From: an uncultured Chitinophagales bacterium
GTDB lineage: Bacteria; Bacteroidota; Bacteroidia; Chitinophagales; JAHDHT01
Assembly (NCBI GenBank): GCA_938023075.1
Contig: CALHDG010000139.1
Span: 1 to 45,979, forward strand
Length of the DNA stretch: 45,979 nt
Direction of reading: 5' to 3'
The position numbers and the translations under genes were made by a program. Positions 1,705 to 39,710 of the stretch are shown in pieces (position 1 is the stretch's first letter; each line of letters begins with the position of its first letter). The notes beneath the pieces are model-generated. The model saw only the letters and a program-made list of their open reading frames with translations, searched no databases and was not told the origin of the DNA.

Positions 1705-1762
1705 AGGGTAAAGTTAAAGAAAAATAAGCTATTATGATATAATATATTAAATGATAGATGTT

Positions 1763-1920
1763 AAGGAACGATGAGAAAATAAATTTACCATCTGACTTTG
1801 CCCTTTTCCGATATATTTCCTTGAAAAGCCTCGCCTTGGTTCCCCACTAAGCCTACGTTTTTCAACTCGTCTATCAAAAAATGACTTTATCAGAGTTGAT
1901 TATTTTATTTTCTCATCGTT
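1763..1920 (-). repeat. Family-1 fold-back repeat, copy A
   Basis: An element of about 158 bp between divergent genes. Its ends are inverted repeats: AACGATGAGAAAATAAA at 1767-1783 is matched perfectly by its complement at 1904-1920. The interior is an imperfect palindrome, with CGATATATTTCCTTGAAAAG on one side and TTTTTCAACTCGTCTATCAA on the other. Copy B matches it in reverse orientation almost along its whole length. It has no coding capacity. It could be a MITE-like non-autonomous mobile element or a structured intergenic repeat. The rest of the gap (1921-2217) holds only the palindrome at 2079-2096. Confidence 0.85.
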
Positions 1921-2078
1921 TCTAATTTGAATATTATTAATCAATAAACATATAGATGAAAAACGCTTTTTGAGTTTAATATGCACTCTTTATTTAAATT
2001 TTACCTAAAAAAACTGGTAATTTGACGTTTGTTGCATTTAATTGTTTGTAATTGAGCAATATATAGCCAGTTTCATTA

Positions 2079-8663: not shown

Positions 8664-8667
8664 GTCT

Positions 8668-8822
8668 AAGGAACGATGAGAAAATAAATTGATCAACTCT
8701 GATAAAGTCATTTTTTGATAGACGAGTTGAAAAACGTAGGCTTAGTGGGTCTAAGACGAGGCTTTTCAAGGAAGTATATCGGAAAATGGCAAAGTCAGAT
8801 GGTAAATTTTTTTATCGTTCTT
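8668..8822 (+). repeat. Family-1 fold-back repeat, copy B
   Basis: This 155-bp element is between divergent genes. It starts AAGGAACGATGAGAAAATAA and ends with the decayed complement TTTTTTTATCGTTCTT. Inside are TTTTTTGATAGACGAG, GAAAAACGTAGGCTTAG and AAGTATATCGGAAAA, shared with copies A and D. The centre holds a small hairpin, CTTAG-TGGGT-CTAAG. It is reversed relative to copy A and is the best copy for a search query. Confidence 0.85.
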
Positions 8823-16197: not shown

Positions 16198-16358
16198 TAA
16201 GGAATTGATGAGAAAATAAACTTACTATCTATTTAATTAAGCAATTTTTTAATAGGCGAGGCGAAAAACACGGTTTGATTGTAGTAAAGAAAAGACTTTT
16301 CGTCAAAGATATATCAGAAAATTGCAAATTCAACATGTATTTTTTTTCTCCTACTTAA
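16198..16358 (+). repeat. Family-1 fold-back repeat, copy C (degenerate)
   Basis: A diverged copy between divergent genes. It begins TTAAGGAATTGATGAG just before AAAATAAA, keeps TTTTTTAATAGGCGAG, GCGAAAAACACGG and AAGATATATCAGAAAATTGC, and ends TTTTTTTTCTCCTACTTAA. Order and spacing match copies B and D, but many bases differ, so it is an old copy. It ends about 46 bp before the ATG of the prenyl synthase gene. Confidence 0.7.
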
Positions 16359-20081: not shown

Positions 20082-20238
20082 GGAATGCGGAGAACATAAA
20101 TCTACTTTTTATGTCGAAGCCATTTTTTGATAGACGAGGCGAAAAACGTAGTCTTAGTGGCGCTAAGACGAGGTTTTTCAACGAAGTATATCGAAAAATA
20201 GCAAATACATAAATGTAAATTTATTTTTGTAGCATTCC
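20082..20238 (+). repeat. Family-1 fold-back repeat, copy D
   Basis: It begins 8 bp after the murF-alr stop. Ends GGAATGC (20082-20088) and GCATTCC (20232-20238) are inverted. The core TTTTTTGATAGACGAGGCGA, GTAGTCTTAGTGG and GAAGTATATCGAAAAATAGC match copy B. The apex is a strong hairpin: GTCTTAG (20151-20157), loop TGGCG, CTAAGAC (20163-20169). It would lie in the 3' UTR of murF-alr. Confidence 0.85.
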
Positions 20239-20423
20239 GTAAATAAATCAACTTATGTAAGTTTTTGTACAAGCACTCTAAAAAAAACAAAAAATAGTTG
20301 CTAATCTTAAAAAGATAATCTATCTTTATTTTATAATTACTTACCATAATTTAAAGGTAAGTTTTGTTCATAAAAATATTGGCTAAGCAAAAAAACTCAA
20401 CATTCATTAAATTGGTGATTGCG

Positions 20424-20581: not shown

Positions 20582-20763
20582 CTAAACCATAAAGTTACAT
20601 TACATCTTAGCATCGTTTTTTTTGAAGCGAAACCTTGCAACATTATATTAGGTTCGGTCCCGCTTTCCGCTCAAATGCCATTTCCCTGCGCTGCAAAAGC
20701 CTTGCAAAATGGCATAACCGCTGCAATCGGGGCTAGTTTAAAAACGCCGGTTCTTCGTACAAA
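20582..20763 (-). ncRNA. Family-2 structured 3' element, copy 1
   Basis: On the minus strand, 60-90 bp past the stop of the metalloprotease gene. The core (20736-20655) reads CTAGCCCCGATTGCAGCGG, then ATGCCATTT paired with AAATGGCAT, then TTGAGCGGAAAGCGGG; CCCG at the start can pair with CGGG at the end. GGTTTCGCTTCAAAAAAAA follows. It matches copy 2 from GTACGAAGAACCG to CTTTATGGTTTAG. Likely a transcribed 3'-UTR structure. A plus-strand frame across it is not a gene. Confidence 0.7.
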
Positions 20764-24663: not shown

Positions 24664-25392
24664 ATGGGTAGTATCACCATAAAAATGACCGTTCCCGAAA
24701 TTTTGGCAGAACTGGAAACCTACGCCAATGAGAATACCAAGCGAGTGCATATGAAACACGGTGCTCGCGAACCAATTTTTGGCGTAAAAGTATCTGACTT
24801 AAAACGGATACAACGCAAAGTGAAAAAAGATCATGAGGTAGCTTTAGAGCTGTATGATACAGGTAATTCTGATGCTATGTATTTAGCAGGACTAATTGCC
24901 GATGAAAACCGGATGACCAAAAAGAATTTACGTAAATGGGTAGAAAATGCCTACTGGTATATGGTAAGCGAATATACCGTAGCATGGATTACCGCAGAAA
25001 GTTGTTACGGCTTTGAATTAGGCTTAGAATGGATTGAATCGGACGACGAAATGATTGCGGCAGCCGGTTGGTCAACCTTAGCTAATTTGGTTGCAGTGCG
25101 CTTAGACTCTCAGTTAGATATTAAAGCTTTCGACAAGTTACTCAAAAGAGTAGCCAAAGAAATTCATAAAGCACCCAACAGAGTGCGTTATACGATGAAT
25201 GGTTTTGTAATTGCCGTTGGCACTTGTTTAGCACCTTTAACCGACAAAGCCAAAGTTGTTGCCGAAAAAATTGGTAAAGTGGAAGTAGATATGGCTGGCA
25301 CTGCTTGCCGTGTACCACTAGCTACCGAATATATTGACAAGGTTGCCGATATGGGGCGCATTGGTAAAAAGAAGAAGACGGCTCGTTGTTAA
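24664..25392 (+). CDS. DNA alkylation repair protein, AlkD-like HEAT repeat
   Basis: A 242-residue all-helical protein of the DNA_alkylation family, whose studied members (AlkC/AlkD) remove N3- and N7-alkylated purines as base-excision glycosylases. Family blocks include HGAREPIFGVKVSDLKRI, YLAGLIADENRMTKKNLRKW, MVSEYTVAWITAES and the end MGRIGKKKKTARC, which is characteristic for this Bacteroidota subgroup. No catalytic residues can be assigned with confidence, so activity is inferred from family. It has its own promoter-like box and is followed directly by repeat copy E. It precedes polA on the same strand, but the 545-bp gap and the separate polA promoter argue against an operon. Confidence 0.85.
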   Translation: MGSITIKMTVPEILAELETYANENTKRVHMKHGAREPIFGVKVSDLKRIQRKVKKDHEVALELYDTGNSDAMYLAGLIADENRMTKKNLRKWVENAYWYMVSEYTVAWITAESCYGFELGLEWIESDDEMIAAAGWSTLANLVAVRLDSQLDIKAFDKLLKRVAKEIHKAPNRVRYTMNGFVIAVGTCLAPLTDKAKVVAEKIGKVEVDMAGTACRVPLATEYIDKVADMGRIGKKKKTARC

Positions 25393-25800
25393 GCAATGCT
25401 ACAAAAACAAATTTACCATCTGTTTAGACTCTTTTTCTACTTGAGTTTGTTGAAAAGCCTTAGCTTAAGTGCTATGAACTAAATAAACTGATGTATTTTT
25501 CATTGGCTAAAATTGAATTTGATTTACTGCATTCGAGCACTTTAGGTGTTACATTTAGGTAGTTAATCAATTTATTTTAATTGAACTCCGTAGAATCAAC
25601 ACTTTGATTAACTTTTTGCTGTATCGCTCCTACGGATATGCACTAATTTTTTAACATTTTAGGCTACCAAGCTGTCATCCTTATGGGATTATCTTTTTGC
25701 AAAAGATTTATAATGAATGTTATAGCATCAAACTTAATGTCTACGTTATCGCCTCGCCTATCAAAAATAGTTTTTCATAAAAAAAGATTAATTTCCAATA
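25393..25800 (-). repeat. Family-1 fold-back repeat, copy E, split by inserted DNA
   Basis: The left half (25393-25480) starts at the alkD-like stop codon: GCAATGCTACAAAAACAAAT then TTACCATCTG, GTTGAAAAGCCTTAGCTTAAG. The right half (about 25739-25800) has TCTACGTTATCGCCTCGCCT and ATCAAAAATAG, as in copy A. Between them lie about 258 bp found in no other copy, containing another repeat type. So the copy is either interrupted or a chance pairing of two remnants. Confidence 0.6.
25587..25700. repeat. Second repeat type nested inside copy E
   Basis: TCCGTAG (25587-25593) and CTACGGA (25630-25636) form inverted arms around an AATCAA-CACT-TTGATT hairpin; GCTGTCATCCTTATGGGAT follows. I recall CCGTAGGA/GGGATGACAG repeats from Bacteroidota intergenic DNA, but cannot verify this. 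No coding capacity. Confidence 0.45.
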
Positions 25801-28736: not shown

Positions 28737-28900
28737 GATTTATCTTTCTTTAAAAGATGGAAAACCTAAACATTCCATTTGGTATAACAATGAACATGAA
28801 ACTTAATTTCTATTGATGATTTGAATTGATTTTTGAAAAAATTGGACTAACTCATCAAAGTGGTTGTTATTTGCTTGTTTTCGAGTGTCTTTGTTTTTTT

Positions 28901-29087
28901 GTTTGTACGAAGAACCGAAGTTTGCAAACTAGCCCCGATTGCAGCGGTTATGCCATTTTAAGTGGCTTTTGCAGCGCAGGCAAATGGCATTTGAGCGGAA
29001 AGCGGGACTATCGTTATTATAATGCTACAAGGTTTCGCTTCAAAAAAAAAAAATTGATGCAAAAGCGTGAACTACTTTATGGTTTAG
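28901..29087 (+). ncRNA. Family-2 structured 3' element, copy 2
   Basis: On the plus strand, 165 bp past the polA stop. The core (28929-29010) runs CTAGCCCCGATTGCAGCGG, ATGCCATTT, a variable loop, AAATGGCAT, TTGAGCGGAAAGCGGGAC. GGTTTCGCTTCAAAAAAAA follows, as in copy 1. It explains the spurious upstream extension of the next gene. The start of the gap (28737-28900) shows nothing else. Confidence 0.75.
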
Positions 29088-29146
29088 TAATGCGTAGAAA
29101 CTACAAAGCAAACATTACTTTTCCGTGGCTATCCGTCTCATTCAAT

Positions 29147-29917
29147 ATGAGAATAATTTGTGTTTTGCTGATGACCCTATTCGCCTATAGCCTGCAAGCG
29201 CAGGTTAATATAGATGGAGCCCAGTTGGTTGATGCGCTCACCAATCCTTCCGATACTGCGTACAATGAAAAATATAATAACAAGCATACGCATTATATAA
29301 ATTTATCGGCGGGCTTTTTTAATCCGGTTAAATTTTCTTTTAGCCTTGCCAACATTAATAGTATTGATGGTAACCCCAGTCCCTCCCTTAACTTAGATTA
29401 TAACTACAGTGTAAACAGCAACCTTAGCCTCGGTGCTTTTGCTAATTACTATCGGGTAAATGCCCAATATACTCCGAGCATAGATGAGTTAGGTACTATA
29501 CTTGGAGAAAGTGCAGAATGTATCAATCAGATTGGTAGTCTCGAAGATATTTTGAATGGCTTAGACTGCATTAGCAATCAAATTAGTGGCGAGAATACAA
29601 CGATAAAACAACGGTTAAATGTAGTCACCTTAGGTGGTAAGTTAAGCCTTCATAAAAGGATACTTCCTAAAATTGATACTTATGCAGCAGGTTATCTTGG
29701 TTACAGTTTTAACCAAAGAGAAACCTTGGTTGAATCCGTTTTAGAAGATTATGCAGCTGAATTACTCAACAAATCTTCGGTAGAAGTTCCTTCTTTTATG
29801 TACTTTGTTAATGCTGGTGCACGTATATATATAAATAAAAATGTAGGCGTTTACGGAGAGTTTGGCTATGGCAATATTCATTTAGCCAGGTTAGGTGTTA
29901 CTTACCGGTTTTTATAA
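29147..29917 (+). CDS. Outer-membrane beta-barrel-like protein
   Basis: A 256-residue protein of unknown function. From ATG 29147 it begins with a clean signal peptide (MRIICVLLMTLFAYSLQAQ). The rest alternates polar and hydrophobic residues in short strands (YINLSAGFFNPVKFSFSLA, NLSLGAFANYYRVNA, VGVYGEFGYGNIHLARLG) and ends YRFL with a C-terminal aromatic residue, as outer-membrane barrels do. A loop holds two Cys (ECINQ, LDCISNQ). The frame is open from 28826, but that extension translates repeat family-2 copy 2 and starts at TTG, so it is rejected. Role unknown. Confidence 0.75.
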   Translation: MRIICVLLMTLFAYSLQAQVNIDGAQLVDALTNPSDTAYNEKYNNKHTHYINLSAGFFNPVKFSFSLANINSIDGNPSPSLNLDYNYSVNSNLSLGAFANYYRVNAQYTPSIDELGTILGESAECINQIGSLEDILNGLDCISNQISGENTTIKQRLNVVTLGGKLSLHKRILPKIDTYAAGYLGYSFNQRETLVESVLEDYAAELLNKSSVEVPSFMYFVNAGARIYINKNVGVYGEFGYGNIHLARLGVTYRFL

Positions 29918-31639: not shown

Positions 31640-31654
31640 GGGGTGAAAATACGG

Positions 31655-31820
31655 CTTAGGAATGAGAAAAAATAAATTTGCTATCTGACTTTACCGTTTT
31701 CCGATATACTTCCTCAAAAAGCCTTGCCTTCCCGAAGTTTCAGGAAGCCTTCGTTTTTCAACTATTCTATCAAAAAATAGCTTTCTCAGCATTGGGAAAT
31801 TTTTTCTCCTCATTCCTAAG
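31655..31820 (-). repeat. Family-1 fold-back repeat, copy F
   Basis: A 166-bp copy with perfect 12-bp ends: CTTAGGAATGAG (31655-31666) and CTCATTCCTAAG (31809-31820). Inside are TTTTCCGATATACTTCCTCA and TATTCTATCAAAAAATAGCT as in copy A. The apex pairs CTTCC with GGAAG, where copy D pairs GTCTTAG with CTAAGAC, so pairing is kept while bases change. Confidence 0.85.
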
Positions 31821-32181: not shown

Positions 32182-35100
32182 ATGATTCAGGAAATAAAAA
32201 AAGAAACAACTCGTATTGTAGGCATAGGCGCTTCGGCTGGTGGTTTGGAGGCAATTAAAGCTTTTTTCTCCTCTACTTTAAATGGCGAGTCTATAGAAGT
32301 TAGTCAAGCAAGTAACCCAGCTTATGTTATTGTTTTGCATCTATCGCCCGATTACAAAAGTTTAATGGTAGATTTATTGGGCAAACAAACGGCATTACCG
32401 GTGCATCAAATTAAGCACAATACCAAAGTAAAGCCAAACAATATTTATATTATCCCACCTAAAAAGCAACTTACTTTAGCCGGCACTACTTTAAAGCTCA
32501 GCCCCAGAATTGGACCCGGTAGTTTCCACCCCATTGATGTTTTTTTTAGTTCGTTGGCACTTGAACAAAAAGAGAATGCGATATGCGTTGTACTTTCTGG
32601 TAGCGGTAATGATGGCACTAAAGGCATTGTAGATGTTAAAAAAGCGGGAGGAATGACCATTGTTTCTGACCCCAGCTTTGCCAAGTTTGACAGTATGCCC
32701 AAAAATGCAATTAATACCGGCTTTGTTGATTTGGTTTTATCGCCAGATGAAATGTTGAAAGAAATTGTACACTATGTTGAATTAACTAAAAATGGTAATG
32801 ATGAAGATTTAGCACACAAAATTTCGTTAGATAAAAATAACCTTGCCCGTATTTTTGAGTTGATAAAAGAAAAAACGGATATTGACTTTAGCACCTACAA
32901 AAAAAATACAATTGTTCGTAGAATACAACGCCGCATGGCGGTAACTCAAAAACAAAACCTGAAAAAGTACTTTGAGTATATGTACTTAAATGAAAACGAA
33001 ATACACTTGTTAAAAAATGAGTTTTTAATTGGTGTAAGTAGTTTTTTTAGAGACCAGGAAGCTTTTTGGTTTATAGAAAATGAAGTAGTACCAAAAATAT
33101 TTGAAAGTATAAATAATACTGATGAGCTGCGTATTTGGTGTCCGGGCTGTTCTACTGGTCAAGAAGCCTATTCGTTAGCTATTTTATTCGACCAATATTC
33201 CCAATCCAATAAAATGTATAATCGAATAAAAATTTTTGCTACCGACATTGATAAAAGTGCTTTAGAAAAAGCCAACATAGGCGAATATCCGATAAGTATT
33301 GACAATGAAGTGCCGCAACACTTATTAGAAAAATATTTTACGGTAACGGCTGAAAACACCTATAAAGTGGTGCAAAATATAAGAGACCGCGTTGTTTTTG
33401 CCTATCACAATTTATTAAAAGACCCGCCTTTTACCAAAATTAATTTTATTAGTTGTAGAAATTTATTGATTTACATTGATGCCGAAATGCAAAAGACCAT
33501 TATGAGCGTTTTTCATTACGCGCTAAAAAGCAAGGGTTTTTTGTTTCTGGGCAGTAGCGAAACCTTAGGTAGTTATGTGCACAAAGACATTGCTGTGTTT
33601 GATAAGAAACAGAAAATATATTATGTAAAAGAAACGGCTAAGTTTCTTTCTGGCAGTTTTTTAGATAAGAATATTACGCTACCAGTTAGCAATAGTTTTT
33701 CATATAAAAAAGATACCGAAACGACCACTCCTTTTGTAAAAAGCATAGAAAAATTCTTCAACAGTCAGTTGATGGATAGTTACATCCCGCCCAGTATTTA
33801 TGTGGATAAAAAAATGGATATACTGCACCTGTATGGCAGCACGGATGCTTACTTAAAACTGCCTCGCAATACGGTTCGGTTAAATTTTGAAGACATGATA
33901 GAAGAATCGTTGCGTATTGTTTTATCTGCCGGTGTTAAACGAGCCTTTAAAAAAAATAAACCTACTTATTATGTAGATGTTGACTGCACGCTTTTGGAAG
34001 TACCCAAAGTAATTGATATTGATATTGTACCACACTTTATTGAACATATTAATCAAACGGTAGTTAGAATTTCTTTTATTAATGTAAAAGAAACTAATAA
34101 AAAGAAAACAAAAACAACAGAGGTTAAAATAGAAGAGTTTACCAAAACACGTATTACCGATTTAGAATACGAATTAAAAGAGTATCAACAAAACTTGCAA
34201 TCGGTTACTCAAGAAATGGAAACTACCAATGAAGAACTACAAGCTACTAATGAAGAATTGCTTTCTTCTAATGAAGAATTACAAAGTACTAATGAAGAGT
34301 TACAATCGGTTAACGAAGAGTTGCTGACAGTTAATGCCGAACATCAAGCAAAAATTGGAGAGCTTACCGAGCTGAATGATGACATGCATAACCTGTTAAA
34401 AAACATAGATGTTGGAACCATATTTTTAGATAAAAATTTAAACATTAGGCGCTTTACCGATGCTGTAAACATTGGCTTAAATTTACGAAATAGAGATATT
34501 GGTAGACCAATTGATGAAATCCGGTTAAAATTTGACTATCCAGATTTGAGGCAAGATGTTGTAAAAGTACTGGCAACTGGTGAAGTTATTGCTCAAGAAT
34601 TATTGACCGAAAATGAACAATGGCTAATGGCACATATTTTACCATACCGAACCACTACCGGTTTAACTAACGGCATTGTTATTACCTTATATAACATTAC
34701 CGAAATAAAAAACTTGAATAAAGTGTTTGAAGATGTTGCCGAAAAATACCGTTTAGAAAATGATAAACTGAATGCCATATTAGAGGGCTTTCCAGACATT
34801 ATGCTACAGCTCGATAAAAAAGGGACTATAGTAGAAGTAATTGTGGGCGACAAATACGAAAATCCTTTAACCTCCTCTAAAAACATACTATCAACTGTTA
34901 AAGCTAAAAACATAGCTAATGTAGATTTTATTTCAACTGATTTAAGAACGGCTATTTTAAAGACTTTTAAAGAATGTTTAAAAACGAGGAAAAGTAAAAT
35001 AGAAACGATTTCGTTTAACCATTTAAATGGTAGCCATCAATTTATTGAAGCCAGATTTAGCCCAATTAAAAACGGCAATGTAACCATTGTAATGAGAGAT

Positions 35101-39540: not shown

Positions 39541-39664
39541 AAAAATATTTTTTTGAAGCGAAGCGATGAACACCAAAGAAAGGCGCAGCCCGCTTTCCAC
39601 TCAAATGTTGCGCTTGGCTTCAAGGCTTTGCTGCATGCAACATAACCGTTGCAATCGGGGCTAG
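39541..39664 (-). ncRNA. Family-2 structured 3' element, copy 3
   Basis: On the minus strand, past the stop and terminator of the choice-of-anchor-B gene. CTAGCCCCGATTGCAACGG, ATGTTGC, loop, GCAACAT, TTGAGTGGAAAGCGGG, then TTCGCTTCAAAAAAA. The hairpin pairs where copies 1 and 2 pair, but with four exchanged base pairs. A 71-codon frame here is not a gene. The stretch 39379-39540 shows nothing else clear. Confidence 0.75.
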
Positions 39665-39710
39665 AAGGCTAGCGGCAGTTTTTCAAAATAACGGTTGGCA
39701 TATAAAATAA

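What the first reader, a model, noticed from the sequence alone, without database searches (positions are those of the whole stretch)
28901..29087. Family-2 element: conserved structured 3' sequence, always sense to the upstream gene
Three copies (20582-20763 minus, 28901-29087 plus, 39541-39664 minus) each lie 60-190 bp past a stop codon, on that gene's strand. All share CCCCGATTGC...CGG, a hairpin, TTGAG(C/T)GGAAAGCGGG and TTCGCTTCAAAAAAA. I recall similar CCCCGAT...GCGGAAAGCGGG sequences in Flavobacteriia, but not a function. Constant strand bias argues for RNA, not mobile DNA.
Basis: partly seen in the sequence, partly recalled or inferred. Interest (0 to 1): 0.72.

Follow-up and report, generated by a model that had tools for sequence, protein, structure and literature searches.

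The report
Flavo-1 hairpin spread by mini-transposon
The three matching sequences are copies of a known but unexplained bacterial hairpin called Flavo-1, which in this genome sits mostly inside a small copy-and-spread DNA element that lands beside genes in either direction, so it behaves as mobile DNA and not as an RNA tail of the gene before it.

Summary
In detail: all three copies match Rfam Flavo-1 (RF01705; 42.7, 40.8 and 34.1 bits against a gathering score of 42), each on the strand of the gene upstream. The inference drawn from that strand bias fails. The genome holds at least 147 matches. Across 93 copies of this subtype the upstream gene runs the same way in 45 and the opposite way in 48. 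Two of the three window copies are eroded members of a ~245-bp MITE. Intact genomic copies have ~12-bp terminal inverted repeats, (G)ACAAGTTTATC, and 8-bp target duplications (20 of 30 match at 6 or more of 8 positions; about 1 expected). MITEs with the same ends but no Flavo-1 also exist, so Flavo-1 is captured cargo. The hairpin itself is genuine: 9 of 11 consensus pairs show double compensatory changes, and G·T mismatches far outnumber A·C, so one strand folds (RNA or single-stranded DNA). In Flavobacterium-like genomes it lies in random orientation, lacks a conserved promoter, varies between species at fixed sites, and is repeatedly invaded by other sequences at GATT^G. Best reading: a REP-like DNA hairpin repeat, here amplified by a MITE. 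An RNA role for the core is not excluded.

The parts
28927..29013 (+). Flavo-1 core hairpin, copy 2 (long-core subtype)
   Evidence: cmscan RF01705 40.8 bits, E 2e-5
28846..29097 (+). Extent of the MITE unit around copy 2, with eroded terminal repeats; lies between polA (stop 28736) and the start region of the next ORF
   Evidence: 5'-end match with 5 mismatches and eroded 3' end against the MITE consensus; both flanks MITE-like
29033..29053 (+). Conserved 3' tail TTTCGCTTC plus A-run
   Evidence: consensus
20652..20738 (-). Flavo-1 core hairpin, copy 1
   Evidence: cmscan RF01705 42.7 bits, over the gathering score
20572..20770 (-). MITE remnant around copy 1; 3' terminal repeat (ATAAACTTGT) present, 5' end eroded
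   Evidence: 3'-end pattern hit at C139:20572-20597 minus; 88% identity to copy 2 over 155 nt
20616..20632 (-). Conserved 3' tail TTTCGCTTC plus A-run of copy 1
39582..39666 (-). Flavo-1 core hairpin, copy 3; no MITE flanks (free copy)
   Evidence: cmscan 34.1 bits, below the gathering score, E 0.0014; flank test negative on both sides
39548..39562 (-). Conserved 3' tail TTCGCTTC plus A-run of copy 3
28937..28941 (+). GATT^G site in the 5' arm. Intact in this copy; the equivalent site is where inserts X, Y and an IS110 element sit in other copies

Best explanation
The three sequences are Flavo-1 (RF01705) elements. Shown: copies 1 and 2 belong to a ~245-bp non-autonomous DNA transposon (MITE) with ~12-bp terminal inverted repeats and 8-bp target-site duplications; it has spread the Flavo-1 hairpin as cargo to 100 or more places in this genome, without regard to the direction of neighbouring genes. 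Copy 3 is a free Flavo-1 without MITE ends. Inferred: a DDE-type transposase acting in trans on the terminal repeats moved the MITE. Inferred with less confidence: the Flavo-1 core is itself a REP-like repeat that acts as a folded DNA strand. One strand folds into stacked short helices separated by GNA/GNA internal loops, and each arm carries a GATT^G site at which other elements insert. It is vertically inherited at some sites, lost or gained at others, and under strong pressure to keep its fold.
For: MITE: terminal repeats and duplications, 20 of 30 intact copies matching at 6 or more of 8 flanking positions, about 1.3 expected; 136 5'-end and 100 3'-end matches in G000 against 0 for the reversed control pattern; MITEs with the same ends and duplications but without Flavo-1. 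Orientation random in G000 (45 to 48) and in other genomes (27 to 33, p = 0.52), and both strands all round a closed chromosome. No conserved promoter upstream. Fold: 96 doubly changed cells against 27 in shuffles, covariation score 0.51 against 0.18. G-T to A-C mismatches are 9:0 in basal helices and 19:2 in the upper stem once a conserved C-A mismatch is set aside, so one strand is selected to fold. Orthologous sites: udk-ftsB and argE-argH carry it in some species and not in others, even at 97% protein identity of the neighbour. GATT^ invasion: insert X at 18 of 19 left ends; module Y in 17 of 18 places, one degenerate. Published RNA-seq of F. [quoted passage not shown]
Against: The core's compensatory evolution and strand-specific folding are equally expected of a functional RNA. 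At the two orthologous sites the element is kept in the same position and orientation across many species, which suggests some selection at those sites. Free Flavo-1 copies show no target duplication, and no enzyme that moves the core was found; RAYT genes are not generally linked to it. No autonomous transposon with the MITE ends was identified.
Confidence: 0.7

Rival explanations
1. Flavo-1 is a functional structured RNA (small RNA, or UTR domain), as Rfam files it. The MITE merely picked up a copy.
For: Strong compensatory evolution of every variable basal pair; G-T tolerated, A-C not; persistence at orthologous sites in one orientation.
Against: Random orientation to genes, including antisense to both neighbours in 22 of 60 classified copies; no promoter of its own; patchy presence, 77 of 396 genomes in the class at E <= 1e-9; published RNA-seq gives no consistent transcript.
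Confidence: 0.25
2. 3'-UTR element: the hairpin protects, processes or terminates the transcript of the upstream gene.
For: The three window copies all follow a same-strand gene; MITE copies are somewhat enriched between convergent genes (32 of 93).
Against: 45 same-strand against 48 opposite, 27 against 33 elsewhere; found between divergent genes too; no T-run after the hairpin.
Confidence: 0.04
3. Classical REP mobilised by a RAYT (Y1 transposase).
For: Many intergenic copies, single-strand fold, conserved NTAG directly at the 5' foot of the stem; subclass 2.6 RAYTs of Bacteroidetes are flanked by atypical hairpins (PMC6006769); one locus (L321) has two Flavo-1 copies beside duplicated RAYT genes.
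Against: No Flavo-1 near any of 12 Y1 loci in G000 at Rfam sensitivity and in only 1 of 30 in the Flavobacterium-like genus, about the chance rate.
Confidence: 0.12

Closest known systems
Flavo-1 RNA motif (Rfam RF01705; Weinberg et al. 2010, PMC2864571)
   Same: Consensus sequence, stem with 3x3 internal loops, intergenic, Bacteroidota
   Different: Catalogued as an sRNA. Here the copies are in random orientation, without promoters, and many are inside a MITE with terminal repeats and target duplications
MITEs (enterobacterial RU-1/RU-2/ERIC type, PMC2759123)
   Same: Short, non-coding, terminal inverted repeats, target duplication, intergenic, high copy number
   Different: Carries a hairpin that also exists independently across the phylum; sibling MITEs with the same ends lack it
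REP sequences / BIMEs with RAYT (PMC2817692, PMC6006769)
   Same: Short imperfect hairpin, TAG at the foot of the stem, high copy number, random orientation; an IS110-family element found in one, as IS621 targets REP (PMC11208160)
   Different: No general linkage to a RAYT gene; foot is NTAG and not GTAG; longer, with GNA/GNA internal loops

Membership tests
Flavo-1 (RF01705) | Covariance-model score at or above 42 bits | tested here: met
   Copy 1 42.7 bits; copies 2 and 3 below (40.8, 34.1) but E <= 0.0014 and same repeat family
Flavo-1 (RF01705) | Conserved base-paired structure | tested here: met
   9 of 11 pairs with double changes, 0 of 500 shuffles reach the covariation score
Flavo-1 as an sRNA gene | Transcribed as a discrete RNA | not testable with these tools
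   No expression data here; no conserved promoter; the literature reports no consistent transcript
MITE | Terminal inverted repeats | tested here: met
   (G)ACAAGTTTATC at both ends; eroded in the window copies
MITE | Target-site duplication | tested here: met
   8 bp; 9 perfect and 20 of 30 at 6 or more of 8; not visible in the eroded window copies
MITE | Mobilised by a related autonomous element | tested here: inconclusive
REP / RAYT system | Element flanks its cognate RAYT gene | tested here: not met
   0 of 12 loci in G000 at Rfam sensitivity, 1 of 30 in the Flavobacterium-like genus
REP / RAYT system | Guide tetranucleotide GT[AG]G at the foot of the hairpin | tested here: inconclusive
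   NTAG directly 5' of the stem in most copies, not GTAG; absent in some lineages
3'-UTR regulatory element | Sense orientation downstream of a gene | tested here: not met
   45 same, 48 opposite; 27 and 33 elsewhere

The most novel reading that the evidence does not exclude
Flavo-1, filed as an RNA, is a single-stranded-DNA hairpin that serves as a dedicated docking site: site-specific micro-elements (a 46-bp module Y in Flavobacterium-like genomes, a ~225-bp insert X here, an IS110-family IS) integrate exactly at GATT^G in one or both of its arms, an unrecognised kind of hairpin-targeted mobile module.
Probability: 0.25. Interest if true: 0.7.

Novelty: new variant of a known kind. Interest (0 to 1): 0.45.

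Why it matters
Flavo-1 is among the most abundant 'small RNA' families catalogued in bacteria (PMC9029176), yet its function is not known. Evidence that many copies are mobile DNA cargo in random orientation, with one strand selected to fold, turns an open annotation into testable questions: which strand acts, whether it is RNA or single-stranded DNA, and what enzyme recognises the GATT^G site. It also warns against counting Flavo-1 hits as expressed small RNAs.

Tried and rejected
RAYT linkage in G000 and in a Flavobacterium-like genus: no general association. A double-foot GTAG hairpin scan near RAYTs found none either, so that scan gave no positive control. Target duplications of free Flavo-1 copies at any offset: none. 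An outer stem pairing the 5' flank with the TTTCGCTTC tail: own tails pair no better than other copies' tails. Own promoter: none. Phage carriage: no exact consensus match in viral contigs. Taxonomy by a genome-contig scan: only two unrelated clostridial-type PolA matches. Single-sequence folding energies are not unusual for the sense strand; the structure rests on covariation. 5'-truncated copies as a sign of retrotransposition: the few 3'-only pieces examined looked more like insert-X damage or decay.

Full report
Observation. The three sequences exist as described. Against Rfam they are Flavo-1, RF01705: 20652-20738 minus (42.7 bits, over the gathering score of 42), 28927-29013 plus (40.8) and 39582-39666 minus (34.1). 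Copies 1 and 2 are 88% identical over 155 nt. Each follows a same-strand ORF; the ORF before copy 2 is DNA polymerase I.

Copy number and orientation. The genome (6.12 Mb, 288 contigs) has at least 147 matches, about 70 over the gathering score; only the best 150 of 1826 first-look candidates were scored, so this is a floor. I read 158 distinct copies. They fall into a short-core class (52) and a long-core class (106) to which all three window copies belong. For long-core copies with both neighbours called by a simple ORF caller, the upstream gene is on the same strand in 45 and the opposite in 48. Between tandem genes, 33 are antisense and 13 sense (p = 0.005), and 32 of 93 lie between convergent genes. 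The 'always sense' pattern is an accident of the window.

A MITE carries the hairpin. Long-core copies align far beyond the Rfam model. The consensus begins GACAAGTTTATCAAAGTGGTTGATA and ends TTAACTACTTTATTGTTTAGATAAACTTGTC, giving an inverted repeat of about 12 bp around a unit of 244-252 bp. In 30 intact copies the 8 bp outside each end match at 6 or more positions in 20 cases and perfectly in 9, where random pairing gives about 1.3 and 0.1. Whole-genome pattern searches find 136 5' ends and 100 3' ends at up to 3 mismatches and none for the reversed pattern. Elements of ~274 and ~285 bp share the ends and the duplications but carry other interiors and no Flavo-1, so Flavo-1 is cargo of one MITE subfamily. 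In the window, copy 2 keeps both flanks in eroded form, copy 1 keeps the 3' end, and copy 3 has no MITE flank. By a loose flank test 48 of 106 long-core copies show both flanks; the 5' half of that test has a 22% background rate, so single-flank counts are weak.

The hairpin is real and single-strand specific. On 45 sequences from several genomes, 9 of 11 consensus pairs have doubly compensated changes; one pair occurs as AU 15, UA 15, GC 12, CG 3, with no G-U intermediate. The basal stem switches CCCG/CGGG to GGG/CCC in other lineages. In parsed copies G-T outnumbers A-C 9 to 0 in the basal helices and 19 to 2 in the upper stem; the latter sets aside, post hoc, a conserved C-A mismatch next to the upper stem. 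A cruciform would give equal numbers, so the drawn strand is what folds, as RNA or as single-stranded DNA. These counts include related copies and are not independent events.

Behaviour in other genomes. Presence is patchy: 77 of 396 genomes of the class at E <= 1e-9, 41 of 199 genera. A closed genome of g99 holds 38 copies on both strands all round the chromosome. Following two orthologous gene pairs through 30 species each, Flavo-1 lies between udk and ftsB in at least 12 and between argE and argH in about 17, always in the same position and orientation. It is missing in the others, including one whose ArgE is 97% identical to that of an occupied species. Upper stems are wholly replaced between orthologues while pairing is kept. 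So the core is partly inherited at fixed sites and partly gained or lost. No conserved promoter precedes it. The F. psychrophilum transcriptome paper reports Flavo-1 hits in sense and antisense alike and many outside transcribed regions (PMC9723704).

A shared insertion point. In G000 a ~225-bp insert X begins right after CCCCGATT in 18 of 19 places, in MITE-borne and free copies, and an IS110-family element (PF02371, PF01548) begins after CCCCGATT in another. In two other genomes a 46-bp module Y occurs in 18 places; 17 are inside Flavo-1 at GATT^G in the 5' arm, the 3' arm or both, and one is too degenerate to call (read by eye). IS110-family elements are known to target REP sequences (PMC11208160). 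Whether X and Y move by such a mechanism is untested; X-bearing MITEs also moved as units, so the X counts are not all independent insertions.

Conclusion. Shown: Flavo-1 identity, MITE structure with target duplications, random orientation, conserved strand-specific fold. Inferred: trans-mobilisation by a DDE transposase, and a DNA-level, REP-like nature of the core. An RNA function of the core remains possible (about one in four).

Noticed in passing
window 1759-1923, 8664-8818, 16207-16308, 20117-20242, 25387-25435, 31652-31808: A second dispersed repeat of ~160 bp with ~30-bp imperfect terminal inverted repeats (AGGAACGATGAGAAAATAAATTTACCATCT), probably another MITE; in L103 it interrupts a Flavo-1 copy.
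   Followed up: partly
L373-L390, L293, L345, L362: 46-bp module Y (ACTTCACT...GGAGTTCAGTGAACTTCGTTT) found essentially only inside Flavo-1 at GATT^G; L381, L383 and L384 have it in both arms.
   Followed up: partly
L374, L376 and L240: A mini-hairpin TCCCGA(A/G)NNTTCGGGA replaces the AAGCG segment of the Flavo-1 5' arm in two different genomes.
   Followed up: no
L113, L116, L121, L129, L130, L131 (G000): MITE siblings with the same terminal repeats and 8-bp duplications but interiors without Flavo-1 (GGTCGCAATTTTTGCGACC or ACGTCATGC types).
   Followed up: partly
L321: A Y1-transposase (RAYT-like) gene beside two Flavo-1 copies with similar upstream flanks, a second such gene 1.5 kb away; the only RAYT locus of 30 with Flavo-1 nearby.
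   Followed up: partly
window 29090-29150: The MITE around copy 2 runs up to the likely start codon of the next ORF, so the element forms its 5' leader.
   Followed up: no
window 34206-34310: In-frame 21-bp repeats (TNEEL-type coiled coil) inside a large ORF; probably an ordinary sensor-kinase linker.
   Followed up: no
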